This document shows positions 39,642-63,840 of a stretch of DNA of 64,000 nucleotides, piece after piece. A program made the position numbers and the translations under genes. The first letter of the stretch is position 1. The number at the start of each line of letters is the position of its first letter. The stretch is from Chitinivibrionales bacterium (GTDB taxonomy: Bacteria; Fibrobacterota; Chitinivibrionia; Chitinivibrionales; WJKA01): NCBI GenBank assembly GCA_014728215.1, contig WJLZ01000086.1:1-64000 (forward strand), written 5' to 3'. Under the pieces are notes generated by a model. That model saw nothing but the letters and a program-made list of their open reading frames with translations, made no database searches and was not told the origin of the DNA.

Positions 39642-40047
39642 CGGTTATTGCCTGCTCTTCAGCTATGACTTTTTTCCGCCATTCATCAAAACGCCGTTCT
39701 TTCAGAAGTTCGACAGCTTTCTTTTCTTTGGATGCTATCTGGAGAGAGACTTTCAATGTCCTGGCGTCACCCCGCATACGATCGATCTGCCGCCCTTTAC
39801 TCAGCATTTCCTGTTTGAGCTTGTGACGGTACGCTACGGAGTGTTTCAATCCTATAATATTGGAAGTATGGGCACGGGTTCCTTTTTGAGTAGCCTGTAA
39901 ATTGGTAAGTTCATCATGTATGCTCGCCAATTCATTGCGTGCCTGGTTTATTTCCCTGTTTCTTTTTGCCAGTTCGAGTCTAACCTGCTCTTCCTTACGC
40001 ATTCGTAACTGAAGAAGGGTTTCGAGGTTGAATTCAAAGCGTCGCAT
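39577..40047 (-). CDS. fliJ: flagellar export chaperone-like stalk protein FliJ
   Basis: 156 residues, predicted almost entirely as coiled coil, starting with FEFNLETLLQLRMRKEEQVRLELA, the classic FliJ opening. FliJ is the central rotor-like stalk of the FliI ATPase ring in the flagellar export apparatus. Its place directly after fliI fits. Its last codons overlap the start of the large surface-protein gene, an unusual neighbour since fliK or flgD commonly follow here. Confidence 0.88.
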   Translation of the reverse strand: MRRFEFNLETLLQLRMRKEEQVRLELAKRNREINQARNELASIHDELTNLQATQKGTRAHTSNIIGLKHSVAYRHKLKQEMLSKGRQIDRMRGDARTLKVSLQIASKEKKAVELLKERRFDEWRKKVIAEEQAITDDISQQGYSRKKHGMLDFRHD

Positions 40048-40108
40048 GGAAAAGGTGTTTCAGGTTGAAATTTAACGGTCATCCCGATTCAACGAGAGCG
40101 GACATTAT

Positions 40109-41425: not shown

Positions 41426-41445
41426 TGACAACAGTAATAATCCGG

Positions 41446-42315: not shown

Positions 42316-42326
42316 AAACTATCCTC

Positions 42327-43394: not shown

Positions 43395-43536
43395 ATAAAA
43401 ATTCTTCCATGATAAGAAAAAGAGCCCTGGTGAGGAACAAACTGTATGCGTCTATGGTTCTTCTCTAATTATATCCTTTTCGCATTAATATGTATAGCAT
43501 CAATACCGATAATTTTATTGATGCAGGATATCACGT

Positions 43537-45069
43537 TCAGGACCGTGACATAGGCGCCGGCTCGTGGAGCCATTGCCTAATTATCGATGCGATATTGGTC
43601 GGCTCTTCTCTCGACAGCATCTCCACCCGTTCCAGAAGTTCAGAGCTTTTCTTGAGGTCTTCGGGAACCTCTTCAGTAACTTCCTCGGGCAGTCCGAAAG
43701 TTTCCACCGACGGCACCGGTGGATTCATTGCCTCAGCGAGTGTCCTGGCCATCGATCGCAGGAACAGGAGAAAGAGGATACCGATAATAAAAAACATCCC
43801 GATTTTGACATACTGGATGATCCGGTCACGCATCTCCTGCTTCCGCATCTCTTCTTGCTGACGACGGAGGTATTCGTTATCGAACTGTAAATTAGTAACG
43901 ACGATTTCATCTCCCCGGGCCAGATCGTAGCCAACGGTGTTTTTCACTATGTCCTCAACCGCCTGAACCTCTTCGGCGGTACGGGCGACATACACGTCCT
44001 CGCCATTTTCATTTTTGTCATATTTACCGTCTACAGCAACCGAAATTGTCAATCGTTTGACATTACCAACTTCGGTAACAATATGCTCGATCGTCTTGTC
44101 GATCTCGTAATTTGTCAAAGAACGCTCCCGCAGACGATCGCCGTCGGGTGCATTTTTAGTATTGTCATCGGTCCGTTCTTCAGAGCGGATAACCCGGCTT
44201 TCCGGATCGTACATTTCCAGGGTCCGTTCGACCATATCGAAGTTCATATCCACGGCTACCTGAGTCTTTGCTTTACCCGGTCCCAGAACGCTGACCAGCA
44301 TGCCCTCGGTCTTTTTTTCGAGATAACGTTCGACTTTCTGCTGTAATTCAAGATTTCGTGACGATGCCAGGGCGGTTTCATCGCCCGCAAAGGGGTCTGA
44401 AAGCAGTTGACCATTATAATCGATAATCGAAATGTGCTCCGGATCGAGCCCTTTGACACTTGCCGATACCAGATAGGAAATGCCCCGGACCTGACCAGGA
44501 GTAAGATTCTGCCCCGGAGTGGTTTTGATTACTACCGAAGCTTTGGCCTCTCTCTGATTATCAAGAAATATCGTGGGTTCGGGAGTAACGATATGAACTC
44601 TGGCCGATTTGACCTCCTCGAGCCCCTCAACGGTACGCTGCAACTCTCCCTCCAACGCACGTTTTGCATTGAGTTTCTGAGCAAAATCGGTCATAGCAAG
44701 ATTAGTCTTATCGAATAGCTCATAACCGATACCGTGAGATTTGGGAAGTCCTTCCTTGGCAAGAGCCATCCGGGCTTCATGGAGCCTTTTCTGTTCGACC
44801 AGAATCGCCTTGCCGTTATCTTCAATCTTATAGTCGTATCCACTCGCTTTGAGCATATCAGTCATGGCGCTCGCCTCATCAACCTCCAGATCGGAATAGA
44901 GAAGCTGATAGCCCGACATTGAAGGTGTTCCTCGCGACCATATTAACAGTCCTGCCAGACCGATAATTGTAAAGGCGATCAGCGATGTAGTGATTATTTT
45001 CTGCTGGAGCGATAACTTCTGCCAGATAGCGGTGAGTTGTGAAATAAGCTGTTTGAAAAACTCAGCCAT
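43537..45069 (-). CDS. fliF: flagellar MS-ring protein FliF
   Basis: 510 residues. One TM helix near the N-terminus (about 24-46) and one near residue 435, flanking the periplasmic YscJ/FliF-type domains. Motifs include YQLLYSDLEVDEASAM, ALEGELQRTVEGLEEVKSARVHIVTPE and ISYLVSASVKGLDPEHISIIDYNGQLLS. The acidic C-terminal tail binds FliG. AAGGGG precedes ATG 45069. Founding component of the basal body. Confidence 0.96.
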   Translation of the reverse strand: MAEFFKQLISQLTAIWQKLSLQQKIITTSLIAFTIIGLAGLLIWSRGTPSMSGYQLLYSDLEVDEASAMTDMLKASGYDYKIEDNGKAILVEQKRLHEARMALAKEGLPKSHGIGYELFDKTNLAMTDFAQKLNAKRALEGELQRTVEGLEEVKSARVHIVTPEPTIFLDNQREAKASVVIKTTPGQNLTPGQVRGISYLVSASVKGLDPEHISIIDYNGQLLSDPFAGDETALASSRNLELQQKVERYLEKKTEGMLVSVLGPGKAKTQVAVDMNFDMVERTLEMYDPESRVIRSEERTDDNTKNAPDGDRLRERSLTNYEIDKTIEHIVTEVGNVKRLTISVAVDGKYDKNENGEDVYVARTAEEVQAVEDIVKNTVGYDLARGDEIVVTNLQFDNEYLRRQQEEMRKQEMRDRIIQYVKIGMFFIIGILFLLFLRSMARTLAEAMNPPVPSVETFGLPEEVTEEVPEDLKKSSELLERVEMLSREEPTNIASIIRQWLHEPAPMSRS

Positions 45070-45186
45070 ACGCTTCCCCTTGACCTCCGTGTATTAAAAA
45101 AATTGAATGCTCCCGATTGCACCCCGGGACAGGTAGAGTAGTGAGATGGCTATGCAATTCTCCCGACTCTCCACGACACTAAATCT

Positions 45187-45492
45187 TTACAATCTCATTC
45201 TCATTACTTCCTGATAAGCATCCATTACTTTGTTCCGAATTTCCATCATCATATTGAATGCTACATTGGCTTCTTCAACTGCGCTCATCACCTGATGAAC
45301 ATCGGTAATTTCGCCGGCAACCATTTTTTCGATCGACTTATCAGCCTTAACCTGCATATCGTTGACATCTTTCATGACGCCTTTGAGAGTATCTTTAAAG
45401 GTTGGCGCATTTTTATCTTTTGCATGGAGCCGTGAAGCCCTGCCGGCTTTTTGGCCGTCATCAACCGGGCCGATCGGATTTATCTGGGCCAT
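45187..45492 (-). CDS. fliE: flagellar hook-basal body protein FliE
   Basis: 101 residues, ending in the conserved VMSAVEEANVAFNMMMEIRNKVMDAYQEVMRMRL helix. FliE joins the MS ring to the proximal rod. AGGAGG lies at good distance before ATG 45492. It sits upstream of fliF as usual. Confidence 0.95.
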   Translation of the reverse strand: MAQINPIGPVDDGQKAGRASRLHAKDKNAPTFKDTLKGVMKDVNDMQVKADKSIEKMVAGEITDVHQVMSAVEEANVAFNMMMEIRNKVMDAYQEVMRMRL

Positions 45493-45609
45493 GTGGTGCC
45501 TCCTGAAAGATTGATTTGCTCTCGGAGAAGTCTCTTTATCATTATATTATTTATATCGTTTGTTGCAGCAATTTTCTATAGATATATTTAAATTACCTTC
45601 ATTTTACAT

Positions 45610-45873
45610 TTATGCGTATCCATCAAAATTGTTTCCCAGTATTTTTGACGGCGTCGTGGACCGCAATTGCCTTCCGTAACCGGCAACTGTCGGGGTTTTC
45701 TGAGGATGTTCTGCCGCCACACTGTTGCTTAACCGCTCAAGTGCACCTTTTAACTGGGTCTGTTTGTTTGCCTGAATTCCGGCCAGTCCGGGATTCCGAG
45801 CCTTCGCTGCGTTCGTTAGCGCCATAAACCGGGCCCACTGGTCGGATCCGCTATTAATCGATTGAATACTCAA
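45610..45873 (-). CDS. small conserved-position ORF in flagellar operon (unknown)
   Basis: 87-residue frame with no recognised domain, hydrophilic and rich in Gln, Ser and Asn, beginning MSIQSINSGSDQWARFMALTNAAKARN. It starts with TTG 45873, yet a strong AAGGGGGAT Shine-Dalgarno sequence stands 7 bases before it and overlaps the flgC stop, so translation is well supported. It fills the space between flgC and fliE, where no gene is normally found. A small rod/export-related accessory protein is possible; this is inference only. Confidence 0.65.
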   Translation of the reverse strand: MSIQSINSGSDQWARFMALTNAAKARNPGLAGIQANKQTQLKGALERLSNSVAAEHPQKTPTVAGYGRQLRSTTPSKILGNNFDGYA

Positions 45874-45878
45874 AAGTC

Positions 45879-45887
45879 ATCCCCCTT
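45879..45887 (-). promoter_or_regulatory. strong Shine-Dalgarno sequence deciding a TTG start
   Basis: On the minus strand AAGGGGGAT precedes TTG 45873 by 7 bases. No ATG in frame lies at comparable distance, so this sequence is the main reason to accept the small flagellar-operon gene and its rare start codon. Confidence 0.6.
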
Positions 45888-46395
45888 ATAACTGTGATGC
45901 CTGCTGGAGCATAGCTTTCATGGAATTGAATGCAGTCACATTGGCTTCATATGCTCTGCTCGCAGCTATCATATCAGTCATCTCTTCAACTACGTTCACA
46001 TTCGGCATCGCTACATAGCCCTTTTCATCGCTGTCCGGATGCGAGGGATCATATACCAGCTTTGCCTCACGACTGTCTTCTCGAATTTCCGCAACCTGAA
46101 CGCCGTTGCCGAAAAACCGTTCATCCCGAGGAAAATTATTTGCGGGAACGGGAAGATGATTTATCAGATTTGAAGTGCCCTTCAATCCCTCTTTTTTGTT
46201 TATCAGCCGTGTTTCTTTGGTGTCGGTCCCCGATTCGAAAACCACATACTGACGCCGGTAGGGTCCCCCCTTTGCAGTACGGGTTGTCTCGATATTGGCC
46301 AGATTCGATGAAATGACATTCTGACGGATTCGCTGGGCCCGAAGCCCCGATGCGCTTATTCTGAGTCCTGAAAATATTCCCCCAATTAACGGCAT
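45886..46395 (-). CDS. flgC: flagellar basal-body rod protein FlgC
   Basis: 169 residues. N-terminal FSGLRISASGLRAQRIRQNVISSNLANIETT is the shared rod/hook signature; the C-terminal PNVNVVEEMTDMIAASRAYEANVTAFNSMK is the FlgC/FlgG-type ending. The middle YVAMPNV is typical. Proximal rod component, exported through the flagellar system; it follows flgB after 67 bases. Confidence 0.96.
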   Translation of the reverse strand: MPLIGGIFSGLRISASGLRAQRIRQNVISSNLANIETTRTAKGGPYRRQYVVFESGTDTKETRLINKKEGLKGTSNLINHLPVPANNFPRDERFFGNGVQVAEIREDSREAKLVYDPSHPDSDEKGYVAMPNVNVVEEMTDMIAASRAYEANVTAFNSMKAMLQQASQL

Positions 46396-46462
46396 ATCAC
46401 ATTCCTTCTCTTAATGACCATCTTCAACATTTCAACTCTTCAACTTTCATTTGACCATCGAC

Positions 46463-46888
46463 CTACTGTATCTGAAGGCTTCTGGCCTGCACCGCTGCAC
46501 TCAATTTTTTCAGTGCTCCTTTGGTAAAACGGATACCAAAATTATATAAAATCTGATTTTCTGCCAATTTAGCCATCTCAGAGTCGATATCGACATTATT
46601 TACTCCACTGGAAAGCGTTGGATCAACCGGCCGTTCTACCAGGGGATTGACCCGGGAAATGTCTTTTCTTCCGATTGCCAGATGTTTTGATTTGGTTTGT
46701 GTACCTTTTAATCGTGTCTTATCCAATGCTTCTCGAAGATGTTCTTCAAAGCTTACTTCGAGGCGCTTGAATCCGGGAGTGGTGGCGTTGGCGATATTAT
46801 TGGCGATAACCCGGGCTCGAAGCATTCCTGCATCAAGACTTTTTTGAACCGATGGGTAGGCTGTTTTTTGAAGAATTCCATTAATCAT
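46463..46888 (-). CDS. flgB: flagellar basal-body rod protein FlgB
   Basis: 141 residues with N-terminal SLDAGMLRARVIANNIANATTPGFKRLEVSFEE and the C-terminal SEMAKLAENQILYNFGIRFTKGALKKL segment, both diagnostic. It is the first gene of the flagellar operon and is preceded by a sigma-54-type promoter 57 bases or more upstream. Confidence 0.96.
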   Translation of the reverse strand: MINGILQKTAYPSVQKSLDAGMLRARVIANNIANATTPGFKRLEVSFEEHLREALDKTRLKGTQTKSKHLAIGRKDISRVNPLVERPVDPTLSSGVNNVDIDSEMAKLAENQILYNFGIRFTKGALKKLSAAVQARSLQIQ

Positions 46889-46944
46889 TTGACAGCTCTT
46901 CTCTGGTTAATTTATAACGACCGTTTGAATATGACGCCCTAAAG

Positions 46945-46964
46945 AAAAGCAATCATAATGCCAA
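46945..46964 (-). promoter_or_regulatory. sigma-54 (RpoN) -24/-12 promoter of the flagellar operon
   Basis: The minus strand reads TTGGCATTATGATTGCTTTT. GG and GC are exactly 12 bases apart, as in the TGGCAC-N5-TTGC consensus, with a T-rich stretch after the -12 element. Transcription would start near 46937 and give a leader of about 49 bases before flgB. This implies an RpoN-dependent activator (FlrC/FleQ-type) elsewhere in the genome. Confidence 0.7.
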
Positions 46965-47183
46965 CGGCGGCGAGATAATTAACCGCATAAAAACCGTTGG
47001 TTTGAATCCCTGTAACCTTTTGAATTAAAGCAAATTAAAAGGATGGTGAATACAACCTGGCCGCAGAAAATATTTTTTTTTCTAAAGTCCCGATAAAATG
47101 TGCCGATAAAGACAGGATCAATTTGCCTAGTCGATGAGGAATATTTTGCTCGGTAGCGGATTGCGTAGAGGGGCAAAATTTTA

Positions 47184-53098: not shown

Positions 53099-53391
53099 AT
53101 TTTTCATTCTCTTTTTCCCCTCTCTATTCAAATGCATTTGCCCTTTCATGGCAATTTAATGGACCGGCAAACCCTGTACAATCGTCAGTTTAAACAACAG
53201 AAATGACTGAATACCTTCCTTATATACTCTATTATTATATAATTAAATACAATTAATGTAATTGTTTTAGCTGTTATCTTTCATGGTATTTCTTATATTA
53301 TATCTAATCTTTAATCCGAATTTTTTTAAAATTCAAAAAATTGCGCACTATTTTGCTGCCGCTCTTTACGCATAATGAAAGGAGGAGTGCG
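53099..53391. other. AT-rich intergenic region
   Basis: About 290 bases between the truncated beta-helix gene and the intact one. Very AT-rich with runs such as TTATATTATAT. It presumably holds the promoter of the downstream gene, but I could not single out one -35/-10 pair; no RNA gene or repeat was seen. Confidence 0.5.
53381..53385 (+). promoter_or_regulatory. Shine-Dalgarno sequence choosing GTG 53392
   Basis: AAAGGAGGA precedes GTG 53392 at good distance, whereas TTG 53341 has nothing upstream. The GTG also opens directly into a normal signal peptide. Confidence 0.65.
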
Positions 53392-55983
53392 GTGTTACGA
53401 TTTTTACCCATAACCCGTTTTGTCTTATTTATTCTTCTGGTTGCCCCTTTATCTTTTGCCATCACGGTATATGTTTCACCAACCGGCGGTGATGATGGAA
53501 ACGCCGGTACCGAATCGGCACCTTTTGCAACCCTTCATCATGCCCGGGACCAGATCAGAGCTTCTAATGATTCTCAAAAAGAGGTGATTCTTCTTGAGGG
53601 AGACTATTTCCTCGAAAACACCCTGACCCTGACTGAAGATGATGGTGGAACCGAACAGAATCCGGTGGTATGGAAAGCTCAGGACGGCGCCGAGGTGCGT
53701 ATTTTCGGCGGCCAACGGATCACCGGCTGGACGGAAGTAAGCGGAAGTATTTACAAGGCAAATGTCGGTTCATCAGACACCGAATTCTGGACTCTTTCGG
53801 AAAACGGCAAACGCAGCCTTCCGGCCCGTCACCCCAATCATATGGAAAACGAAATTCATGGTGCGACAAAAAGCACACTCGATTCAAAAGCCCAGGCTGA
53901 TTATCCTGCAGATCTTTTTCCTTCCAACTGGGACTACACCCATGCCCGGGTGAATGTAACCTGTTACGGCTGGTTTTCTCAGTGCCGTCCTGTAGAATCG
54001 GTTGATTTCGGAAACAGGGTAATTACCTTTGACGGTCGAACCAGAGACGAAGTCGGAGTTTACTGGGTCGAAGGCTCAAAGGATTTTATCGATATCCCTA
54101 CCGAATGGGCGCTTGACGGCAACGGCGATGTTTTTTACTGGCCGGCACAGACGCCGATCGAAGACCAGGTTATTGTGGCCGGAACCCTGAAACGGGTGAT
54201 CGAATTTAAAGGAAGCTCTCAATCCGACCCGGTAAAACATATCATTTTCGAAGGGATACTGGTATCAACATCCGATTGTACCCGCCACGGCCTCAGTAAC
54301 AAGGAAGCGGTTGACGGCGACAATATTGTCAACGGTGAAGCCAACTGCGAAAGCGATTACAGTCGTCACGGCCTTATCCACCTGGAAAACGCCGAACATA
54401 TTACAATCCGTAAATGTCGCATTTTCAATGCCGGTATTATGGGCGTACTTTTCAACAACTATGCCCAGTATAACACCCTTACCAACTGCTGGATTGAGGG
54501 GGTCAACTATTGCGCGGTTTATCTTACCTCCTATTGCATCGGCTCCGGTCCATGGGATTATATCAATCATCACAATACCATTACCAACAATTTCATTCAT
54601 GATTTCGGCAAACTCTGGAGTAACGGTTCGGGAGTTCAGATCTACCAGAGCGGCGACAACGATATCGGACACAATCTTATCCGCCGGGGACCGCGCTATG
54701 CAGTATCGATGAAAGGAATGAGCGATACCACGTTTATTAAAAGCAACAACAATAACATCCATCATAATGAAATCTGTCACACCCTCAATTCGACCTGGGA
54801 TACGGGAACGCTTGAAGCCTGGAATGCGGGAACCGGCAACAAATGGGATACCAATCTGTTCCATGACATTTTTCATATAACCATTCCTACCCGTACCTAT
54901 AACGCCAACGGAGATCCTTTTCCGGTGGGCATCGGAATCTCACAACGTCACTGCATGTACCCCGACGCCGGTCCGGCAATCGAAATCACCGACAATGTGG
55001 CATATAATATCATCGATTATATCGACTGGCATCATAATGCGCCGGGTGGTGGGAAAACATTTCCGAACAGCTTTTACCCCCATCCATACACGCGCGCCAA
55101 AGCAAAGGCCATGGCGGAAGATCTCGGTATTGCCTTCGACGATATCGGGCTTTCCGACGACTTTCCTTTTCCGACGCCCCAGGTCAGGGAGTATGAATAT
55201 CCTGTTGAGGCGGAAATCAATCCAATTTACGAAGAGGATATCTATTCCCTCCTTGGTGACGGCGCCGGTTTGACGGGAGTTTACTATTCAGGCGCAGATT
55301 TCGATCAGCAGGTGATCGCCCGGGTTGATCCTCTCCCCGCCAAGCTCTGGTCTACATCACCGGCCGGAACCAACACCTGGTCGGCACGCTGGACAGGAAA
55401 AGTCGTGCCGATTTATTCGGAAGAACACCGTTTTTGTGCCACAACCAACGGCGGTTGCCGTATGTGGGTTAACGGCGCCAAGGTATTCGATGAATGGGAA
55501 ACGTTCTCCCCCGGCGAACCTTGGGAAGCAAAAGATACCCGGCTGATTCTCAGTAGAGAGTTCATTCCTCTTGAAGCAGGTGAGGAATATGAGGTCACCA
55601 TAGAATTTTTCTCTCAGTCGAGTGACGCCAACCTGGCTATCGACTGGTACTCCCACAGCATGCCGACCCAGGTAATCCCCACCAGTCAACTCAAACCCGA
55701 TCCGGCAATTGAAGTTGGAATCGGTGGTCCTGTAGCCGGTAATTACAACGATAAAAACATCCGGCTATCATTAGCAAAAAACAACGCCCTTATTTCGGTT
55801 CCTTTCAAAGGCAAGCACTCGGTTAAGCTTATAGCACCCAATGGTGTTGCAATCAAAACGTTCAAAGGAGCAAAAGCCGGAAATTATTCGGTTAGTACCC
55901 AGCATCTTGCTGCAGGCGTCTATCTTGTTTCGGTACAATCGGATAAAGGATCGTCTGTACAGCGAATGGTAATACGTAAATAA
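53392..55983 (+). CDS. secreted beta-helix protein with PA14 domain and C-terminal sorting tail
   Basis: 863 residues from GTG 53392. Signal peptide (LRFLPITRFVLFILLVAPLSFA), then ITVYVSPTGGDDGNAGTESAPFATLHHARDQI, the standard start of DUF1565/polysaccharide-lyase-like beta-helices, which run to about residue 580 and carry Asn- and His-rich coils (e.g. NHHNTITNNFIHDF). A PA14 domain (about 625-770: GLTGVYYSGADFDQQ…RMWVNGAKVFDEW) may bind carbohydrate. The final 75 residues (VKLIAPNGVAIKTFKG…AGVYLVSVQSDKG…RMVIRK) are a type-IX-style/Fibrobacter-type tail. Likely acts on plant or algal polysaccharide outside the cell. Confidence 0.85.
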   Translation: MLRFLPITRFVLFILLVAPLSFAITVYVSPTGGDDGNAGTESAPFATLHHARDQIRASNDSQKEVILLEGDYFLENTLTLTEDDGGTEQNPVVWKAQDGAEVRIFGGQRITGWTEVSGSIYKANVGSSDTEFWTLSENGKRSLPARHPNHMENEIHGATKSTLDSKAQADYPADLFPSNWDYTHARVNVTCYGWFSQCRPVESVDFGNRVITFDGRTRDEVGVYWVEGSKDFIDIPTEWALDGNGDVFYWPAQTPIEDQVIVAGTLKRVIEFKGSSQSDPVKHIIFEGILVSTSDCTRHGLSNKEAVDGDNIVNGEANCESDYSRHGLIHLENAEHITIRKCRIFNAGIMGVLFNNYAQYNTLTNCWIEGVNYCAVYLTSYCIGSGPWDYINHHNTITNNFIHDFGKLWSNGSGVQIYQSGDNDIGHNLIRRGPRYAVSMKGMSDTTFIKSNNNNIHHNEICHTLNSTWDTGTLEAWNAGTGNKWDTNLFHDIFHITIPTRTYNANGDPFPVGIGISQRHCMYPDAGPAIEITDNVAYNIIDYIDWHHNAPGGGKTFPNSFYPHPYTRAKAKAMAEDLGIAFDDIGLSDDFPFPTPQVREYEYPVEAEINPIYEEDIYSLLGDGAGLTGVYYSGADFDQQVIARVDPLPAKLWSTSPAGTNTWSARWTGKVVPIYSEEHRFCATTNGGCRMWVNGAKVFDEWETFSPGEPWEAKDTRLILSREFIPLEAGEEYEVTIEFFSQSSDANLAIDWYSHSMPTQVIPTSQLKPDPAIEVGIGGPVAGNYNDKNIRLSLAKNNALISVPFKGKHSVKLIAPNGVAIKTFKGAKAGNYSVSTQHLAAGVYLVSVQSDKGSSVQRMVIRK

Positions 55984-56084: not shown

Positions 56085-56570
56085 TCATCGTAATTTCTCG
56101 ACTAACCTCTCGACCAGTTCATCAACAGCCGAATCAATCACCGGACTTAACCCTTCACCCAGATACTCGGGGATTTCGATAGTTACGCCCCATATTTCCC
56201 ACTCCGGGAAGGGCGAGACAATATCGAGTTTGCGAAGGGTTTCCATTACCGAGGCAATATCGGTCTGATGGAGTGAGGGAGCAAAGGCGCGGGAGGCTTT
56301 TTTTACAATGCGAATATGCCCGGGTTTTGCGCCTGCCAGCGCATCAAGAAAAACAAACCGGCCAGCTTTTTCCAGAAGGTCGGCAATCTCATAAATATCA
56401 CCACTTAAAATGTGGAAAAAGATGTCATTTCGCCTGCCTAAACGTTCCTGCAAACGCCGAACCGCAATCACCCCCGCGGCGTCATCACCGACAAGTGTGT
56501 TACCTATTCCGATTATACCCAGAGGGGTATTTTTTTTATCAGGATGAAGGCTTGTAGAGTTTGACCTCAT
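56085..56570 (-). CDS. [NiFe] hydrogenase maturation protease (peptidase M52)
   Basis: 161 residues (ATG 56570; GTG 56576 also possible, with AGGAG upstream of both). It starts GIIGIGNTLVGDDAAGVIAVRRL, the HycI/HyaD/HoxW signature with the nickel-binding residues (the Asp in GDD, Asp of FLDAL, His of SLHQTD). It trims the C-terminal peptide of the large subunit after Ni insertion; the substrate is encoded two genes upstream. It overlaps the ferredoxin gene by 32 bases and is the last gene of the operon. Confidence 0.94.
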   Translation of the reverse strand: MRSNSTSLHPDKKNTPLGIIGIGNTLVGDDAAGVIAVRRLQERLGRRNDIFFHILSGDIYEIADLLEKAGRFVFLDALAGAKPGHIRIVKKASRAFAPSLHQTDIASVMETLRKLDIVSPFPEWEIWGVTIEIPEYLGEGLSPVIDSAVDELVERLVEKLR

Positions 56571-57276
56571 AAACACATTGCTCCTGGCCTCTGCTTGCTT
56601 TTGTTAAACGGGGACGAATTCCGCTGATTTTGTTAAAATACCCCGCAAGATAATTGTAAAAGAGCACGCAGAGATCTCCCCCCAGCGAAATCCCTTCACG
56701 GCCGCAGAGATCACGAATAAAGCATTTGCCCACAGTGAGGGTCAGTTTATCATCGCTCAACTCAGGCTCTATCTCCCATGCTCCGGAGAACATATGTACG
56801 ATCATTGCAAGAACATCCTCTACCGATTCGGGGTGTTGATAGCGGGGTAGCTGCGTTGCCAATGATCTTCCGGCCATTGTTCCAACCGCAGGCAGACTCT
56901 GGCCGAGAGTCTGTTTAAGCACCGAAGCCACCGAAAGCAGACGCATACCAAGGTCTTCTTCAGCCTGTTTCAGGCTTTCCTCTTCTTCGATTACGTTATA
57001 AACAAGAGCAGTTTCACCGGTCTTTTTTGCAAGGGCAAGGGCCTTGGGATCATGATAAAAAACCTGTGACATCCTGATATTGGAATGGGATATTGCCGTG
57101 GCAGGGCATATCTCCGTGCAGCTTAAACAGCCAAAACATTCATGCGCTTTCACTACCCCGGGAACAGCATCGGATTCACTGTATTCAAATACCTTTGTCG
57201 GACAGATATCGGCACACAGGGCACAGCCCACGCATGCCTTTTCATCGATAGTAATCTCTGGAGCACTGTTATTCAT
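56539..57276 (-). CDS. 2x[4Fe-4S] ferredoxin fused to a V4R-like domain
   Basis: 245 residues. Two ferredoxin motifs at the N-terminus (CVGCALCADICP and CFGCLSCTEICP, residues 15-65). The C-terminal part (about 110-245) has the Cys-containing pattern VGKCFIRDLCGREGISLGGDLCVLFYNYLAGYFNKISGI…QCVYEVKL, which resembles V4R (4-vinyl reductase) domains that bind small hydrophobic ligands. The ferredoxin part most likely carries electrons from the hydrogenase small subunit; the V4R part could gate this by ligand binding (inference). Coupled to the large-subunit gene by an ATGA overlap. Confidence 0.8.
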   Translation of the reverse strand: MNNSAPEITIDEKACVGCALCADICPTKVFEYSESDAVPGVVKAHECFGCLSCTEICPATAISHSNIRMSQVFYHDPKALALAKKTGETALVYNVIEEEESLKQAEEDLGMRLLSVASVLKQTLGQSLPAVGTMAGRSLATQLPRYQHPESVEDVLAMIVHMFSGAWEIEPELSDDKLTLTVGKCFIRDLCGREGISLGGDLCVLFYNYLAGYFNKISGIRPRLTKASRGQEQCVYEVKLYKPSS

Positions 57277-58679
57277 TCCATCACTCCCCTTGTCAATGTA
57301 TTAACAATTGTTCCTGCTTTTCGCACCTCCACTGTCATGGGCATTTTTCCCGCTGCATGCGTTGCACAGGCAAGACAGGGATCGAAACACCGTACGGCGA
57401 ATTCGATCCCGTTCATCATGAGCTCATCACCACCCTGCTTTTTCATTTCCCGCGCCGTCAGGGTAAGTGCGGTATTAATAGCATCATAGTTATTCTGTGT
57501 CGCAACAATAAGGTTGGCGCCGGTAACTTTACCCTTACTATCGGCGGTATAGTCGTGTACCAGAATTCCACGGGGGGCCTCAATCGCCGCGATATACCGT
57601 CCCTCCCCTGGAGTAACGTTTTCGAGTAATATATCACCGGAGGGCAACTCCGAAGGGATAGCCGCGATTCGTTCTGCACAATGGACCATTTCAATTATCC
57701 GCGCTTCAATATTGTCCAGGACACAAAGGCGGGGGGTTCCGCTGCTTTTAAACTGTTGCATGAGTTCGGAAGCCCGGGGTGTCGAGAATGAATCATTGAC
57801 ATTCATCCGTGCAAGGGGGCCCACAAAATATTCCTGTTCCCGCTCACCTTTCAGATGCACCGATTTCATATAAGAACCCGACATAACATGCTCGATAAAA
57901 TGATCGGCGTATTTTTCCGCTTCAAAAATCCGGTCCTCATTCCCGGCACTATCACAAACCCGAAGAACGCCTTCACCAAAATCAACTTTACCGTTGCTGG
58001 TAATGGCCAGCGAATAATAATCGAGTATGGTTGCATCCCGAAGAGATTCAAGCCTGGCGATCAGCTCGATTAATGGTGTATGGAGATCCATTAAAATTTT
58101 GAGCGCTTCGCTCCCCCACTCACGGATTTTATCCAGTTCTTCACCGGTTGGTTGGGATGCAATTCCGCCGGGGACAAGGGTTACCGGATGAACGCCCCTT
58201 CCTCCCACAATTTCAACAATCCGTTGACCGATACTTCGAAGGCGCAGTGCTTTTCTGGCCAGCTCGGGATTGGAAGAGAGCAGGTGGAAGATGTTTTTCT
58301 CCTGCGGAGGGGCATCGATTCCCCTCACGATATCCGGCCCTAGCAACACAAAGGTACTCAAGGCATGAGAGTGGAGGATGTGGCCGGCGTACAGGAGTTC
58401 ACGAAGCAATTTCGCTTTAAGCGGAGGAATAATCCCCGCGCCATTTTCGATAGCGACAACTGATGCCAGGTGATGAGCAGCCGGACAAACACCGCAGATA
58501 CGTCCGGTAACAAGGGGCATTTTAACAAGCTCCATGTTTTCGAGCAGTTTTTCGAATCCCCGGATTTCCAGTACCTGCAGTCGACCCGCCGTGATTTCAT
58601 CGTTATCATTCAGGTCCAGAATCACCCTGGCATGGCCTTCAATCCGGGTGATCGGTTCGATTTTTATCTGTTTCGGCAT
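57273..58679 (-). CDS. [NiFe] hydrogenase large subunit (group-3-like)
   Basis: 468 residues carrying the Ni-Fe(CN)2CO site. Proximal ligand pair RICGVC (Cys62, Cys65) and distal pair DPCLACATH (Cys435, Cys438) are intact. Sequence following His441 is a 27-residue C-terminal peptide, as expected for a subunit matured by the M52 protease encoded two genes on. ITRIEGHARV at the start and SHALSTFVLLGPD agree with cytoplasmic group 3 (Mvh/Hox-type) enzymes rather than membrane-bound group 1. Function: reversible H2 activation. No diaphorase or Hdr subunit is encoded here. Confidence 0.96.
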   Translation of the reverse strand: MPKQIKIEPITRIEGHARVILDLNDNDEITAGRLQVLEIRGFEKLLENMELVKMPLVTGRICGVCPAAHHLASVVAIENGAGIIPPLKAKLLRELLYAGHILHSHALSTFVLLGPDIVRGIDAPPQEKNIFHLLSSNPELARKALRLRSIGQRIVEIVGGRGVHPVTLVPGGIASQPTGEELDKIREWGSEALKILMDLHTPLIELIARLESLRDATILDYYSLAITSNGKVDFGEGVLRVCDSAGNEDRIFEAEKYADHFIEHVMSGSYMKSVHLKGEREQEYFVGPLARMNVNDSFSTPRASELMQQFKSSGTPRLCVLDNIEARIIEMVHCAERIAAIPSELPSGDILLENVTPGEGRYIAAIEAPRGILVHDYTADSKGKVTGANLIVATQNNYDAINTALTLTAREMKKQGGDELMMNGIEFAVRCFDPCLACATHAAGKMPMTVEVRKAGTIVNTLTRGVME

Positions 58680-58696
58680 TATGTCTCCTTAATATT

Positions 58697-59605
58697 TTAC
58701 TGTGCCCATTCTCTTATTTTTACTGCAGGCTTTTTGTACATGACCGGTGATGCCATTGCATAGGCGTAATAGGTCCTGGCTTCATCTTCGATATATTGCC
58801 TGATTTCCTGTTCCTCTATACCGGTAAGCATGCTCATTCGCCGTGCGATCATGGTCCGCATATCGAGATGGGGTTCGGTAATAATATCTGTCGACGGTCC
58901 TGCGCAACCGCTGCAGGCCACCCCCTTGTTCGGGCATTGAGCAAGACAGCGTTCCATGGTAACGGATCCCATGCAGACAACCCCCTGGCTCAGAAAACAA
59001 ACAGTGTCATCCGCTGCAGTCACATTTCCTTTTTGTAATGCAACAGGCGAAACCTTTTTCATCGTGCGCTCACATCTGGAGCAAACGGTCTTTTGAACCA
59101 TTGATTTTTTTTCGGGTGATAAAAGACCGGTAATTGCCGAAGCAATCCAGTATGGATGAGGTGGACAACCGGGAAGATACCGGTCGACAGTTACGATTTC
59201 ATCGATTGGAACCACACTCTGTTCAAGCTTTGGAGCATTACTGTCGGGCCATTCCCCCGGGGCATTGGTCATTCCCGCTCCATATGCTTTTTCCAGTACC
59301 GAATCACCCCGGTAAAGCCAGCCCACCCCCGAAGGGCCTCCATACACAGCACAGGTTCCGAATGCGATAAGTGTTTTGACGCTCTCACGCATTTTGATGC
59401 ATGCCGCACGATCATGTTCGCTCCGAATAGCGCCTTCAACAATGCCGACATCGGCCCGGGGATACTCCCTTTCATCCATCAAAACGGGAACCCGGACAAA
59501 TTCCACTGAGTCAGTAAGGTTAATAAGCTTTTCGTGCAAATCCACCACCGCAACATGGCAGCCGGAACATCCCGAAAGCCATTCGGTAGATATCTTAATT
59601 TTCAT
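58697..59605 (-). CDS. [NiFe] hydrogenase small subunit
   Basis: 302 residues, no Tat signal, so cytoplasmic. WLSGCSGCHVAVVDLHEKL holds the first proximal-cluster cysteines (Cys13, Cys16); IAFGTCAVYGG and LPGCPPHP supply the others. The C-terminal half has further cysteines (CSRC; VCFLSQGVVCMGSVTMERCLAQCPNKGVACSGC) giving medial and distal clusters as in MvhG-like subunits. It overlaps the V4R gene by 11 bases and precedes the large subunit. Confidence 0.95.
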   Translation of the reverse strand: MKIKISTEWLSGCSGCHVAVVDLHEKLINLTDSVEFVRVPVLMDEREYPRADVGIVEGAIRSEHDRAACIKMRESVKTLIAFGTCAVYGGPSGVGWLYRGDSVLEKAYGAGMTNAPGEWPDSNAPKLEQSVVPIDEIVTVDRYLPGCPPHPYWIASAITGLLSPEKKSMVQKTVCSRCERTMKKVSPVALQKGNVTAADDTVCFLSQGVVCMGSVTMERCLAQCPNKGVACSGCAGPSTDIITEPHLDMRTMIARRMSMLTGIEEQEIRQYIEDEARTYYAYAMASPVMYKKPAVKIREWAQ

Positions 59606-60089
59606 TTTTCCCCTCCAGTATAAGTTCTTTCAGGCAGGCATTCGGTCCTGCATGAACGATCTCGAGCGTTGCCTTGGTATTGTTCATTACCTTTTCCATG
59701 GCGCCTGCAAATACCCCGTGGGCCATGTAACACAATGACTGTTTCTGCTCGTGGGAATACCGGAAGAGGGCATTTCTCACCATACAGGTATGGAATACCA
59801 GTCGGATTTTTTTCTTTCCTTTTTCTTCGATGATAACATCATCATTTTCTCCCTGAAAAGGCTCGAACTCCCAGACGATGCCCCTTTTCGCAAGTGCTTC
59901 ACGAAGGATACCGATCGCCTGTATCGGATCATTGGTTTTTCCACTGGCTTCCGTGGCTTCACTGCCGAATTTCTTGCCTGCCAGCGAACAGATGGAAAGA
60001 CTTCCTTTACCAAGATTTTTTTCAGATGCGCTGGCCAGGGCACCAACGAAGTACGCTACATTGTGAAGCGTTCCGAGTTCATTTGCCAT
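59595..60089 (-). CDS. stand-alone V4R-like protein
   Basis: 164 residues from ATG 60089 (AAGGAG 10 bases upstream; the open frame extends further but that part overlaps the preceding gene and reads as low-complexity). The C-terminal HTCMVRNALFRYSHEQKQSLCYMAHGVFAGAMEKVMNNTKATLEIVHAGPNACLKELIL matches the V4R/4-vinyl-reductase pattern 'C..…G…G…G…C'. V4R domains bind small molecules in regulators and enzymes. It lies between three roadblock-like genes and the hydrogenase small subunit, so it may link signalling and enzyme (inference). Confidence 0.72.
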   Translation of the reverse strand: MANELGTLHNVAYFVGALASASEKNLGKGSLSICSLAGKKFGSEATEASGKTNDPIQAIGILREALAKRGIVWEFEPFQGENDDVIIEEKGKKKIRLVFHTCMVRNALFRYSHEQKQSLCYMAHGVFAGAMEKVMNNTKATLEIVHAGPNACLKELILEGKNEN

Positions 60090-60106
60090 GATCTCTCTAC
60101 TCCTTT

Positions 60107-60445
60107 TTATTCTTCGTTCTGTTGAATCGACTGAAGTTTCATGAGCACATCCCCGATAACCATATGCCTGTTTCCTGCAACGACGAAAATCATATTTTTT
60201 CTCCGGGAAATAATCATTGTCCCATGCTTGAATTCGAGAAGGATCCACTGTAGTTCTCGGAGTCCCAGCCCCTGCCCCATCCCTTCGGATGCCATTGCAC
60301 AAATGGCGGATACCGCCGCGACATGCTCAGGATCGGTCGTTCCGGCGTTAAGGGCCCCCAGCAGGAAACCATCAGAGCCAACAAGATAAGCCCCGAGCAC
60401 CCCGCGGGTTTCAATGAGTGTTTCGAGGTTCGACAGATTATTCAT
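60107..60445 (-). CDS. roadblock/LC7 domain protein 3
   Basis: 112 residues, one complete roadblock/LC7 fold: LETLIETRGVLGAYLVGSDGFLLGALNAG, a central helix with AVSAICAMASEGMGQGL, then IILLEFKHGTMIISRRKNMIFVVAG and a closing helix. Such proteins usually act as dimers that regulate Ras-like GTPases (MglB type). It lies 17 bases upstream of the V4R-like gene. Confidence 0.85.
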   Translation of the reverse strand: MNNLSNLETLIETRGVLGAYLVGSDGFLLGALNAGTTDPEHVAAVSAICAMASEGMGQGLGLRELQWILLEFKHGTMIISRRKNMIFVVAGNRHMVIGDVLMKLQSIQQNEE

Positions 60446-60485
60446 GGAGAAGAAACATATTCAGCACACATTTACGGACCACAAC

Positions 60486-60839
60486 TTACAGCAATTTGAC
60501 AAGGCCGTCAACACCTTTTTTCACGGCGTACCGTACACTTCCGATTACCGCATTGAGATCGGTGATAACCACCAGAATATCTTCACCGGCTGCGGCAATA
60601 ATTACTTTTCCCATCGCAAATTCGAGCAGATACTGTTCCAGTTTGCCCATTTCAAAATCTTTGCCGATCATTTCCGATGCTCCGATTGCACTGGCAACGA
60701 CCGCACCCAGAGCGTCGGTGTCCAGCGTTGCCGCACTGGCACTCTCAATAACGAAACCATCGCGACCGACAATCGCTACCGCTGTAACACCATCGATCCT
60801 TAAAAATTCACCCAATGCTTCTTTAATCGTTTTGGCCAT
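60486..60839 (-). CDS. roadblock/LC7 domain protein 2
   Basis: 117 residues. GDLEFL-type first helix (IKEALGEFLRIDGVTAVAIVGRDGFVIES), LDTDALGAVVASAIGASEMIGKDFEMGKLEQYLLEFAMGKVIIAAAGEDILVVITD, and a final helix: the clearest roadblock of the three. Good Shine-Dalgarno (AGGAGGG) before ATG 60839. Spaced 40 bases from the next roadblock gene and 17 from the previous one. Confidence 0.92.
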   Translation of the reverse strand: MAKTIKEALGEFLRIDGVTAVAIVGRDGFVIESASAATLDTDALGAVVASAIGASEMIGKDFEMGKLEQYLLEFAMGKVIIAAAGEDILVVITDLNAVIGSVRYAVKKGVDGLVKLL

Positions 60840-60856
60840 GAGCCCTCCTTGTATCT

Positions 60857-61228
60857 TTAAATTTTTGTAATAAGGTCAATGATTGCGTTCTCCCAGGTAC
60901 CGATATCAGCGCCCCGCGCAAAGAGAACCATTATAAACCTACTCTCATTCAGTTCCCGGATATACATCGTTCCGTGATCAGTGGTCACTGAGAGTTTCTT
61001 TTCTCCGGTATCAGGCAGCACATCGAGATTACATCCTGCGGCAAACAATCCTGCGGCAAGTGAAACAATTTCCTCTACCGATGCAGCGCCGCGGACCTGC
61101 CATGCTGTCGGAAGCCCATCTTTGCTTACCTGCGCAACGGCTTCAATGGCTGGTGATAGCTCCATTATTGTCTCCAAAACCCGGGAAACATCACCCGATA
61201 GGCTGTTTTTCTGTTCTCTTTCTTCCAT
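60857..61228 (-). CDS. roadblock/LC7-like protein 1
   Basis: 123 residues of the same fold but more diverged: VLETIMELSPAIEAVAQVSKDGLPTAWQVRGAASVEEIVSLAAGLFAAG, then KKLSVTTDHGTMYIRELNESRFIMVLFARG. It may form heterodimers with the two roadblock proteins encoded downstream. The surrounding gaps are 27 and 17 bases, which fits an operon. Confidence 0.75.
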   Translation of the reverse strand: MEEREQKNSLSGDVSRVLETIMELSPAIEAVAQVSKDGLPTAWQVRGAASVEEIVSLAAGLFAAGCNLDVLPDTGEKKLSVTTDHGTMYIRELNESRFIMVLFARGADIGTWENAIIDLITKI

Positions 61229-61255
61229 AATACTTGGAGTTCTCTATCCTTTCGT

Positions 61256-62332
61256 TCAGGGATTACAGCTCTTGCATGGTGTCAAACTATCCCTTATGGC
61301 ATCGCTCCGTTTATCGAACCACTGCAAATGCTCCACCTTCGTACTCGTCAAGGTCAGGCATGATGGTACATGAAATGTGTTCCGTCCTGCAACACCCACA
61401 TAATTGCCCTGTGCTATAAGACGGGGAGGACTGAACCATGACTCCCTGATTTGAAGCGGTTTTTGTTCTCCGATAACTGATGTGCCCCATATTCCATTAA
61501 AGTTACGGGCGAGTTTGCCGAAGGCACGATGAGCGCAATCGTTTACAAAAGGTGCTATCACCGGCGCATTTCCACCCCGTGCCGACAGAGCGAGAATCAA
61601 ACCGGTGTTTTTTACCGGTCCGGTAATAACCGCGGCCTGGGCATTGGAAAGGGAAACACATTCAACTCTTTTAGCACCGGTTTCGACAATGGCCCGTTTT
61701 GTCCGGTGGTAAAACATACCAAGCTTGCCGGCAATTTCTTCAACGGTATCGGCATTGCCTGAAGATTCGAGGATAAAGCCGTCACTGTCGATGAGTGCAA
61801 CACAGTCGATAGCTTTTGAAAAACCTGCGGTCTTCCTGATTATATTTTTCTCGACCCAATAAATCTCTTCTTCACCGGGCTCCGGCCAGATTCGCATAAG
61901 CTCATTTAAATAATCCTTGAGGACATTCCGGCACCGGAGACTGAAATGATCGAGGATTGTAACCACCTGTTCTCTGATCGAATCATGGATACCTTTGGGC
62001 TTATGCAATTGCACACGGGAATAAAAGGGCAGCCCGCCTACCGTAAAGCAGGATACCGCTTCCCATGAATCGGCAGCGATTGATATACCGAACCGTTTGT
62101 TGGTTTTACTCGAGGGTGTAAAAGAATGAATTGCATTCCGGTCCCATCCGTCGGTAACCGATGTTCCGGGACATATGCCGACCAGGGGACCATAGTTTGA
62201 TTCGAGGGAGAGACCGATTACTCTTTGTGCCTGTGCCTCCCGAAGGGGATGTTTTACTTTTTCCGGAAGCCCGGCCCCATCGGTAACAATGGAAACTGCT
62301 ATTTTGGCAAGAAGACTTTCGGCTGCAGTCAC
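61256..62332 (-). CDS. roadblock-like protein with C-terminal Ada-type zinc-binding tail
   Basis: 358 residues. An N-terminal domain of unknown type (about 1-160); a roadblock-like domain (about 165-255: AIDCVALIDSDGFILESSGNADTVEEIAGKLGMFYHRTKRAIVETG); and an Ada_Zn_binding-like tail (about 310-358: VGVAGRNTFHVPSC…DSLTPCKSCNP) in which His321, Cys325, Cys353 and Cys356 would bind metal. The fusion is, to my knowledge, unusual. The start overlaps the upstream gene stop by four bases (ATGA), indicating coupled translation with the DUF4388/pseudo-GTPase protein. Confidence 0.72.
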   Translation of the reverse strand: MTAAESLLAKIAVSIVTDGAGLPEKVKHPLREAQAQRVIGLSLESNYGPLVGICPGTSVTDGWDRNAIHSFTPSSKTNKRFGISIAADSWEAVSCFTVGGLPFYSRVQLHKPKGIHDSIREQVVTILDHFSLRCRNVLKDYLNELMRIWPEPGEEEIYWVEKNIIRKTAGFSKAIDCVALIDSDGFILESSGNADTVEEIAGKLGMFYHRTKRAIVETGAKRVECVSLSNAQAAVITGPVKNTGLILALSARGGNAPVIAPFVNDCAHRAFGKLARNFNGIWGTSVIGEQKPLQIRESWFSPPRLIAQGNYVGVAGRNTFHVPSCLTLTSTKVEHLQWFDKRSDAIRDSLTPCKSCNP

Positions 62333-63840
62333 TCTGCACCTTTCCCTGGAAAGTCAGAGGTTAATGCCGTGATGTTCTTAAGCACCGGGGCTATATCATC
62401 GATGGAATCGACACGACAGGAAAGGCATTTATAGCGTACATTCACGTTTCCTGAATTTTTTCTAACAGCCTCTTCAACCGCATCCGGCTTCTCACAAAGA
62501 AGAACTGCGACAGGAACCTTCTTTTTGTCTAAATCCTGTACAAATGATGAAGCATTTTTGGTTTCAGTATAGAGAACGGTTGGAGACCCGTTGAGGATTT
62601 CACATTCTTTTTGCATCCCGATTCCCGCCAGATAGTAGCAGACTCCTCCGGTGCGCCCCAGGCGAATAACCGGAAACGAATTGCCGGATAGTTTGTCCGG
62701 TGAAAATTTTTTGGAAAGAACACCAAAGAAGGAAGAAAGCAATGAATCTTCTGCACGAACAGTAAGTATCATATTCCTTGCAGAAAGCATTTTTAAATCT
62801 GCGATATCAGCATTGCTCATCCATCGAAGCGGCAGCGTTCCCGGCTCAATACTTGCTACCATCGATTCGAGAGGATTCCGCGCAGAATGACCTTTTCTGC
62901 CGGAAACGATTTTTGATTGAGCTGCAGAGTGAGATTTTTTATTCTCTGCCGAAGATGAAACGGGCTCCGTGCGCTCAGCTCCAACATGTTCTTCGATGCA
63001 GTTCAATTTATCCAGATTTATGGTGGTCGACCAGCTTTTTGTCTGTGATTGATCGATAGAAAAAGCATAGGAGAGTAGAATCTGCTCCATGGGCCAGTGA
63101 AGGTTCCGGACATCGGGAATCCATGCATGTTTTATGACCCGCAGAATACCATGATTTAAGGAGAGAAGCTCATAGATCGCTTCGATCCCGATATGATGAC
63201 TCGACCATGCCGTTGTCGGGACACCGCTCTGAAAAGAGATACCGCCACGGATTCTCTCCAGACAATTGGTATCGTCAACGTCCTTTTCTACAATGCAGCC
63301 GTCAATTCTGACAACGGCACTCCATCCCCCTATCGCGATCATCTGGAGAACATCACTTACCGGAACATCTTCTATTCGTGAAGCCATTAGTGGGCGATAC
63401 AGGGATGTTCGTATCTTGGTGATATTTTCCCAATTGGATTCCCATCCTTCTTTAATATTAATAATGCCCGACAGGCGAAGACTCGAGGGAAGCTCAAGCG
63501 CTTCATGAGGCAATCTGGTTCCGTTCTTTAATGCCAGAGTAAAAGCATGATTTGGTGCACACTCAAGTGCCCGGGCACCAGCCTCTAGGAAGGAATAACC
63601 GGAGCGGATATCGCATAGTACAACACCACACTTTTGAAGGTTTGATTCCAGTGACTGGAAATCAGACAAATCACCGGAATATTTGACGGTACATTCCGCA
63701 TTGCTGTTTTCGACAAAGGTTGTAAACTGATTATAGAGTGCCTTCTCGGGAGAAAGAAGCAAGATATCGAACTCATTCGACATCGTAAGGGAATCAAATC
63801 CCGGCATGGGTGGAAAATTATCCGGATAACTCGTTTTCAT
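62329..63840 (-). CDS. receiver-like/DUF4388/degenerate Ras-like G-domain protein
   Basis: 503 residues; first gene of the hydrogenase operon. Receiver-like region (about 22-148; Asp77 in VVLCDIRS at the phosphoacceptor position). DUF4388/PATAN-like domain (about 150-240; VSDVLQMIAIGGWSAVVRIDG, ISFQSGVPTTAW, EAIYELLSLNHGILRV). Ser-rich linker (270-330). The C-terminal part (about 355-495) aligns by eye with the MglA/COG2229 GTPase layout: IRLGRTGGVCYYLAGIGMQ at the switch-II position, then VPVAVLLCEKPDAVEEAVR. But it has no P-loop, and GIGMQ and CEKPD replace GTPGQ and NKxD. ATG 63840 is used; ATG 63783 is possible. Confidence 0.6.
   Translation of the reverse strand: MKTSYPDNFPPMPGFDSLTMSNEFDILLLSPEKALYNQFTTFVENSNAECTVKYSGDLSDFQSLESNLQKCGVVLCDIRSGYSFLEAGARALECAPNHAFTLALKNGTRLPHEALELPSSLRLSGIINIKEGWESNWENITKIRTSLYRPLMASRIEDVPVSDVLQMIAIGGWSAVVRIDGCIVEKDVDDTNCLERIRGGISFQSGVPTTAWSSHHIGIEAIYELLSLNHGILRVIKHAWIPDVRNLHWPMEQILLSYAFSIDQSQTKSWSTTINLDKLNCIEEHVGAERTEPVSSSAENKKSHSAAQSKIVSGRKGHSARNPLESMVASIEPGTLPLRWMSNADIADLKMLSARNMILTVRAEDSLLSSFFGVLSKKFSPDKLSGNSFPVIRLGRTGGVCYYLAGIGMQKECEILNGSPTVLYTETKNASSFVQDLDKKKVPVAVLLCEKPDAVEEAVRKNSGNVNVRYKCLSCRVDSIDDIAPVLKNITALTSDFPGKGAE

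What the first reader, a model, noticed from the sequence alone, without database searches (positions are those of the whole stretch)
56085..63840. [NiFe] hydrogenase operon fused to a roadblock/pseudo-GTPase/V4R signalling module
Ten tightly packed minus-strand genes (gaps 0-40 bases, several ATGA overlaps) join a group-3-like hydrogenase, its maturation protease and a ferredoxin to three roadblock/LC7-like proteins, a roadblock-zinc protein, a DUF4388/degenerate G-domain protein and two V4R-like domains. Roadblock and DUF4388 proteins normally act with MglA-type GTPases in polarity or gliding control; finding them in the operon of a catalytic hydrogenase suggests either a hydrogenase whose assembly or activity is gated by this module, or an H2-responsive signalling complex. 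I know of no described system of this layout.
Basis: partly seen in the sequence, partly recalled or inferred. Interest (0 to 1): 0.85.

Follow-up and report, generated by a model that had tools for sequence, protein, structure and literature searches.

The report
Candidate hydrogen sensor built from hydrogenase
A bacterial gene cluster encodes an apparently intact hydrogen-processing enzyme with no usual electron-accepting partner, co-encoded instead with small ligand-binding adaptor proteins (V4R) and signalling proteins that differ between lineages, which suggests the enzyme senses hydrogen and reports to the cell's signalling machinery; no such class is described for this branch of hydrogenases.

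Summary
The ten-gene minus-strand block is real. P1-P5 are a protease, a ferredoxin-V4R fusion, a group-3-type [NiFe] large subunit, a VhuG-like small subunit and a V4R protein; P6-P8 are roadblock proteins; P9 is roadblock plus an Ada-like zinc tail; P10 is receiver-like plus DUF4388. The 'pseudo-GTPase' is unsupported. V4R, only a lead from sequence, is confirmed by fold. P5-P1 form a cassette found in seven genomes of two phyla (4 of 168 Fibrobacterota; 3 Bacteroidota). Its large subunits form one clade (99/99), as do its small subunits, apart from the Hdr-linked and NAD-linked enzymes compared. No cassette operon encodes an Hdr, MvhD, FrhB or NAD(P) module, but signalling genes adjoin all seven: roadblock/DUF4388 (window, G039), roadblock plus pseudokinases (G002, G003), and an overlapping or abutting methyl-accepting chemotaxis protein (three Bacteroidota). 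In G027 the G039 locus lacks exactly the hydrogenase cassette, so the roadblock module is separable. Best explanation: a group-3-lineage H2/redox-sensing hydrogenase whose V4R subunits pass its state to interchangeable signalling modules, analogous to [FeFe] groups C1-C3 and [NiFe] group 2b. H2 sensing itself is inferred, untested.

The parts
62329..63840 (-). P10, 503 aa: receiver-like domain (about 24-147), DUF4388/PATAN-like domain (about 150-265), variable C-terminal alpha/beta region (no MglA relationship found)
61256..62332 (-). P9, 358 aa: unknown N-terminal domain, roadblock domain (about 172-247), Ada-like zinc-binding tail with conserved C325, C353, C356
60857..61228 (-). P8, roadblock/LC7-like protein (divergent, below Pfam cut-off)
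60486..60839 (-). P7, roadblock/LC7 protein, 83% identical to its G039 homologue
60107..60445 (-). P6, roadblock/LC7 protein
59595..60089 (-). P5, V4R (Bet3/TRAPPC3-fold) protein, 164 aa; C102, H113, C120, H146 and C152 invariant in six distinct homologues
58697..59605 (-). P4, VhuG/MvhG-like [NiFe] hydrogenase small subunit; 12 cysteines shared with Hdr-type small subunits (three [4Fe-4S] clusters)
57273..58679 (-). P3, [NiFe] hydrogenase large subunit; RICGVC and DPCLACATH nickel motifs and C-terminal extension intact
56539..57276 (-). P2, 2x[4Fe-4S] ferredoxin fused to a second V4R/ATC-hydrolase-like domain; two separate genes in Bacteroidota
56085..56576 (-). P1, hydrogenase maturation protease (HycI/HyaD superfamily)

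Best explanation
The P5-P1 cassette encodes a group-3-lineage [NiFe] hydrogenase that works as an H2/redox sensor. H2 (or the H+/H2 potential) is read at an intact NiFe site; electrons leave through three [4Fe-4S] clusters to the two clusters of the ferredoxin part of P2. The redox state is sensed by the V4R domain of P2 and by P5, which act as adaptor subunits. They hand the signal to a lineage-specific module: here, roadblock proteins P6-P9 and the receiver-like/DUF4388 protein P10 (possibly with a Ser/Thr kinase or the divergent PAS histidine kinase/LuxR pair next door); in Bacteroidota, a methyl-accepting chemotaxis protein. Shown: gene content, clade, cassette behaviour, V4R fold, intact metal-binding motifs, recurrent signalling neighbours. 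Inferred: complex formation, H2 as the signal, electron flow to V4R, and the output (perhaps motility/taxis or hydrogenase expression).
For: Seven loci in two phyla carry V4R-small-large-Fd-V4R (the ferredoxin gene of G665 falls in an unlisted gap). Large subunits are one clade, 99/99, and small subunits too, 99/99. None of the operons has an Hdr, MvhD, FrhB or Hox diaphorase gene, whereas other hydrogenases in the same genomes do (HdrA2 in L024; HoxF/HoxU-like genes in L077, L078, L022). Signalling genes adjoin all seven: roadblock/DUF4388, roadblock + pseudokinases lacking HRD and DFG, HAMP-MCP overlapping or abutting the protease gene, PAS/receiver/histidine-kinase genes upstream. V4R fold matches PoxR/MopR/DmpR sensors. 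The own genome already has two NAD-linked hydrogenases and HypD; in G003 one lies about 3 kb from the cassette. The window operon sits in a contig with a flagellar operon and a CheB/CheD/CheX/CheY cluster.
Against: No biochemistry. The roadblock module persists without the cassette in G027 and G012, so the link between the two halves in this window could be loose. The C-terminal extension and protease are retained, unlike classical group 2b sensors. A small soluble ferredoxin could equally feed metabolism. Signalling genes are common in genomes of 4-6 Mb; no formal enrichment test against random loci was made. The tree has 16 sequences and lacks archaeal 3a/3b references.
Confidence: 0.6

Rival explanations
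1. A metabolic hydrogenase: H2 oxidation reduces the ferredoxin of P2, the V4R domains bind and reduce or hydrolyse an organic substrate (or simply scaffold), and the neighbouring signalling genes only regulate the operon.
For: All catalytic and cluster ligands are intact; protease present; P2's C-terminal domain matches ATC hydrolase weakly (E=1.4e-4) and so does the Bacteroidota V4R2.
Against: No acceptor enzyme in any of the seven operons; the V4R fold has known sensor roles; the co-directional partner in Bacteroidota is an MCP, not an enzyme; patchy distribution alongside other, complete hydrogenases.
Confidence: 0.22
2. Gating in the other direction, the reader's first option: the roadblock/DUF4388 or MCP module controls assembly, localisation or activity of the hydrogenase.
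For: Roadblock proteins are dimeric platforms for other proteins (PMC10933270); they are tightly packed with the hydrogenase genes in the window and G039.
Against: The roadblock module is dispensable for the cassette (absent in Bacteroidota) and the cassette is dispensable for the module (G027, G012).
Confidence: 0.1
3. Two unrelated operons placed head to tail by chance; the association in the window is incidental.
For: The module occurs alone in two genomes, and 139 of 168 Fibrobacterota genomes have at least one roadblock gene.
Against: Same P10-to-P3 order in two families; all four Fibrobacterota cassettes adjoin roadblock genes, although the window genome has only one other roadblock gene at Pfam significance, its MglB.
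Confidence: 0.08

Closest known systems
[NiFe] group 3c (Mvh/Vhu, heterodisulfide reductase-linked) hydrogenase
   Same: Best family matches are VhuA and VhuG; same 12 cluster cysteines in the small subunit.
   Different: Scores are far below the VhuA/VhuG cut-offs (283 of 800; 222 of 450); a separate clade from Hdr-linked enzymes of the same phylum; no Hdr or MvhD gene; two V4R domains instead.
[NiFe] group 2b regulatory hydrogenase (HupUV/HoxBC)
   Same: Proposed role as an H2 sensor coupled to signalling proteins.
   Different: Different lineage: the regulatory large subunit HoxC branches with group 1 outside group 3. The C-terminal extension and protease are kept here, whereas the HoxC used ends at the DPC..C..H motif.
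[FeFe] group C1-C3 putative sensory hydrogenases
   Same: One hydrogenase lineage distributed over different outputs: histidine kinase, MCP, Ser/Thr phosphatase (PMC5037454).
   Different: [FeFe] rather than [NiFe]; the V4R adaptors and roadblock output have no counterpart in that table.
MglA/MglB/DUF4388 polarity modules
   Same: Roadblock proteins related to MglB and a DUF4388 domain.
   Different: No MglA-type GTPase in the operon; the genome's canonical DUF4388-MglA-MglB locus is elsewhere (contig C19).
V4R sensor domains of PoxR/MopR/DmpR; MetOD1 of methanogen two-component systems; Bet3/TRAPPC3
   Same: Fold. DmpR binds zinc through C151, E172, C177 and C185 (PMC7264223); P5 has C120, H146 and C152 at comparable places by sequence inspection only. 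MetOD1 is a V4R/ATC-like signalling output domain with three conserved Cys (PMC5847659).
   Different: Here the V4R proteins are stand-alone or ferredoxin-fused and co-encoded with a hydrogenase.

Membership tests
[NiFe] hydrogenase, group 3 lineage | L1 and L2 nickel-binding motifs and placement with HoxH/Mvh-type rather than group 1/2 large subunits | tested here: met
   RICGVC and DPCLACATH; tree separates the group 3-type sequences from HoxC and HoxG at 100/100
Group 3c, Hdr-linked | HdrABC and MvhD encoded with the hydrogenase | tested here: not met
   no such gene in the cassette operons or the neighbourhoods read
Group 3c, Hdr-linked | Large subunit in the same clade as Hdr-linked enzymes | tested here: not met
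   separate clade 99/99; Hdr-linked set 98/98; only few references
Group 3d, NAD-linked | HoxF/HoxU diaphorase genes in the operon | tested here: not met
   absent from the cassette operons; present beside other hydrogenases of the genome
Group 2b regulatory hydrogenase | Branches with HupV/HoxC | tested here: not met
Group 2b regulatory hydrogenase | H2 binding changes the output of a partner kinase | not testable with these tools
   needs experiment
V4R domain family | Passes the Pfam V4R cut-off | tested here: not met
   12.5 of 31 bits
V4R domain family | V4R/Bet3 fold | tested here: met
   Foldseek probability 1.00 to TRAPPC3 and PoxR, E 1e-4, TM about 0.55-0.6; model pLDDT 77.6
Roadblock/LC7 | Passes Pfam Robl_LC7 cut-off | tested here: met
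   P6 44.9 and P7 60.6 of 23 bits; P8 (16.1) and P9 do not pass on their own
MglAB polarity module | Ras-like MglA GTPase with P-loop encoded with the roadblock proteins | tested here: not met
   no MglA match in the ten proteins
Small GTPase (P10 C-terminus) | Sequence or fold match to a G domain | tested here: inconclusive
   no profile match; alpha/beta topology in a low-confidence model; fold search returned receiver domains

The most novel reading that the evidence does not exclude
A previously unrecognised class of sensory [NiFe] hydrogenase within group 3, defined by a ferredoxin and two V4R transducer domains, that plugs the same H2 sensor into different signalling outputs in different phyla (roadblock/DUF4388, pseudokinase, chemotaxis receptor). 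In Fibrobacterota it joins V4R (Bet3-like) with roadblock proteins, a domain pairing reminiscent of TRAPP.
Probability: 0.55. Interest if true: 0.85.

Novelty: new variant of a known kind. Interest (0 to 1): 0.72.

Why it matters
H2 sensing by hydrogenases is described for [NiFe] group 2b and proposed for [NiFe] 2c and [FeFe] group C; group 3 is treated as purely metabolic, and group 3c calls are read as electron bifurcation (PMC5037454). If V4R-linked group 3 enzymes are sensors, metagenomic H2 budgets that count them as 3c would be wrong for these organisms. The system would also give an experimentally accessible role to bacterial V4R and roadblock proteins outside GTPase polarity control, and a possible route to H2 taxis.

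Tried and rejected
Pseudo-GTPase in P10: MglA profile and profile-profile comparison negative, PDB profile search negative, fold search gave only receiver domains. V4R by sequence alone: too weak, PDB profile search empty; resolved by structure. Saprospiraceae locus L028, the only non-Fibrobacterota hit of the genome-contig scan: its genome has no V4R homologue and its large subunit groups with HoxH/Hyd enzymes. Single clade for the four Fibrobacterota cassettes: not favoured by the tree (window and G039 group with Bacteroidota, 96/92) but not rejected either (AU p=0.072); the small-subunit tree leaves this order open. Terminator and promoter scans: counts no higher than in shuffles. Literature: no paper linking hydrogenase with roadblock or V4R in an operon; one three-term search for NiFe hydrogenase, chemotaxis and H2 sensing returned nothing.
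Full report
1. The observation. The window is bases 1-64000 of contig C86 (141 kb) of a 5.0 Mb assembly; relatives place it in Fibrobacterota, and a same-order relative is a named Chitinispirillaceae MAG (G039 contig C274 and JAFGHA010000172.1 have the same length, 9291 bases, and the same match). Gaps are -4, 27, 17, 40, 17, -11, 17, -4 and -38 bases from P10 to P1. No promoter or terminator signal inside the block exceeds shuffles; this supports one transcription unit but does not show it. The next genes on either side are a convergent beta-helix-like gene (53341-55983) and a divergent PAS histidine kinase and LuxR-type regulator just beyond the window.

2. The parts. P3 and P4 match VhuA and VhuG best but far below the curated cut-offs (283 of 800 bits; 222 of 450). 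The nickel ligands RICGVC and DPCLACATH are intact, followed by a C-terminal extension, and P1 is a hydrogenase protease. Twelve cysteines of P4 are shared with Hdr-type small subunits, enough for three [4Fe-4S] clusters. P2 is a 2x[4Fe-4S] ferredoxin with a C-terminal domain related to P5 (profile-profile 96.5%). P5 gave no usable sequence match, but its model (pLDDT 77.6) matches TRAPPC3 and the V4R sensor domains of PoxR, MopR and DmpR. C102, H113, C120, H146 and C152 are invariant in six distinct P5 homologues; C120, H146 and C152 lie roughly where DmpR has zinc ligands (PMC7264223), by sequence inspection only. P6 and P7 are roadblock proteins; P8 and the middle of P9 are divergent ones. 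The roadblock profile used contains P6-P8, so its E-values for them are not independent; Pfam and the PDB profile search are. P9 ends in an Ada-like zinc motif. P10 has a receiver-like N-terminus and a DUF4388 domain. A G domain is not supported.

3. Where else it occurs. A search of 168 Fibrobacterota genomes with P5 finds four carriers. G039 has the same order P10 to P3 on one contig, and the end of P3 with P2 and P1 at the start of another. G002 and G003 have P5-P4-P3-P2 with a different roadblock protein, a coiled-coil protein ending in a roadblock-like domain (weak LAMTOR5 match in G002) and protein-kinase-like proteins. The kinase-like genes just upstream of V4R in G002 and G003 lack the HRD and DFG motifs, and a third in G002 has HRM and DLG. 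Searches of 396 Bacteroidota genomes, of 391 of one class and of 22 of one family give three carriers, all in one family. Their operon is V4R, small, large, ferredoxin, separate second V4R, protease, then a HAMP/MCP chemotaxis protein, with overlaps or near-zero gaps; G665 repeats L089 at 94-99% identity in these genes, but its short ferredoxin gene was displaced in the listing by a spurious ORF and was not confirmed separately. In G412 a second MCP and PAS/receiver/kinase genes precede the operon.

4. One clade, one cassette. In a 16-row tree the V4R-type large subunits are one side of a branch (99/99), apart from Hdr-linked sequences (98/98; HdrA2 verified beside L024) and from HoxH/Hyd-type sequences (85/91). 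Small subunits agree (99/99). In the large-subunit tree the window and G039 group with the Bacteroidota (96/92), which hints at transfer between phyla; the alternative is not rejected (AU p=0.072). In G027, a genus-mate of G039, the same locus (Ser/Thr kinase 65%, P10 47%, P9 66%, roadblocks, MFS 60%, TolC-like 51%) lacks P5-P1. Hence P5-P1 moves or is lost as a unit and the roadblock module stands without it. G012 likewise has the P10-P9-P8 block without hydrogenase.

5. Mechanism. No cassette operon has a dedicated acceptor (Hdr, MvhD, FrhB, HoxFU), while separate hydrogenases in the same genomes do: two NAD-linked ones in the window's genome (L077, L078), an Hdr-linked one in G039 (L024), and a NAD-linked one about 3 kb from the cassette in G003. 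All seven cassettes adjoin signalling genes, of types that differ by lineage. V4R domains are known effector-binding sensors. The economical reading is a sensor: H2 reacts at the NiFe site, the ferredoxin and V4R domains report, and a module chosen by lineage gives the output. The taxis link is explicit in Bacteroidota (MCP), and G002 has an MCP about 6.5 kb from V4R. The window operon lies between a flagellar operon (about 39-47 kb) and a CheB/CheD/CheX/CheY cluster (about contig bases 72-77 kb), which is suggestive only. H2 as signal, complex formation and electron flow are inferred.

6. Comparison. HydDB lists sensory classes as [NiFe] 2b and 2c and [FeFe] C1 (histidine kinase), C2 (chemotactic) and C3 (phosphatase), and none in [NiFe] group 3 (PMC5037454). 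What is seen here works like group C, one hydrogenase lineage with several outputs, but is not a member of it, nor of 2b or 3c by the tests above. V4R is related to Bet3 of TRAPP (PMC2253512), and Asgard roadblock and TRAPPC3-like proteins form TRAPP/Ragulator-like dimers (PMC10933270); the V4R plus roadblock combination here is therefore notable, but no complex is shown.

7. Limits. Only two phyla could be searched, so breadth is unknown. Tree sampling is small and lacks archaeal 3a/3b enzymes. No enrichment statistic for signalling neighbours was computed. P10's model is weak and P9 was not modelled. All carriers seem to be MAGs or unnamed assemblies.

Noticed in passing
window 39000-47000 (minus strand) and contig C86 about 72-77 kb (L019:10235-15240): Flagellar genes (FliG and the FliI-type ATPase confirmed by Pfam; FliF- and FlgB/FlgC-like by eye) on one side of the hydrogenase operon and a CheB/CheD/CheX/CheY cluster on the other.
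   Followed up: partly
L074 (G027:C77:14000-33000): Same locus as G039 but with the P5-P1 hydrogenase cassette missing and a gene for a 194-aa protein in its place: a natural cassette loss or pre-insertion state.
   Followed up: yes
L021:4878-6482, L021:6858-8657, L022:9089-10915: Kinase-like proteins lacking HRD/DFG residues next to the V4R hydrogenase; two carry weak TPR matches at the C-terminus. Candidate pseudokinase partners.
   Followed up: partly
L021:2540-3814 and L022:3599-4846: Coiled-coil proteins ending in a roadblock-like domain, near the cassette.
   Followed up: partly
L077:5371-10410 and L078:6647-11234: Two NAD-linked (HoxF/HoxU-containing, HydABCSL-like) [NiFe] hydrogenase operons in the window's genome.
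   Followed up: partly
L076:5247-8611 (contig C19): Canonical DUF4388-MglA-MglB locus in the same genome; MglA has a long proline/glutamine-rich C-terminal tail.
   Followed up: no
window 53341-55983: Large secreted right-handed beta-helix-like protein (880 aa), convergent with the operon end.
   Followed up: no
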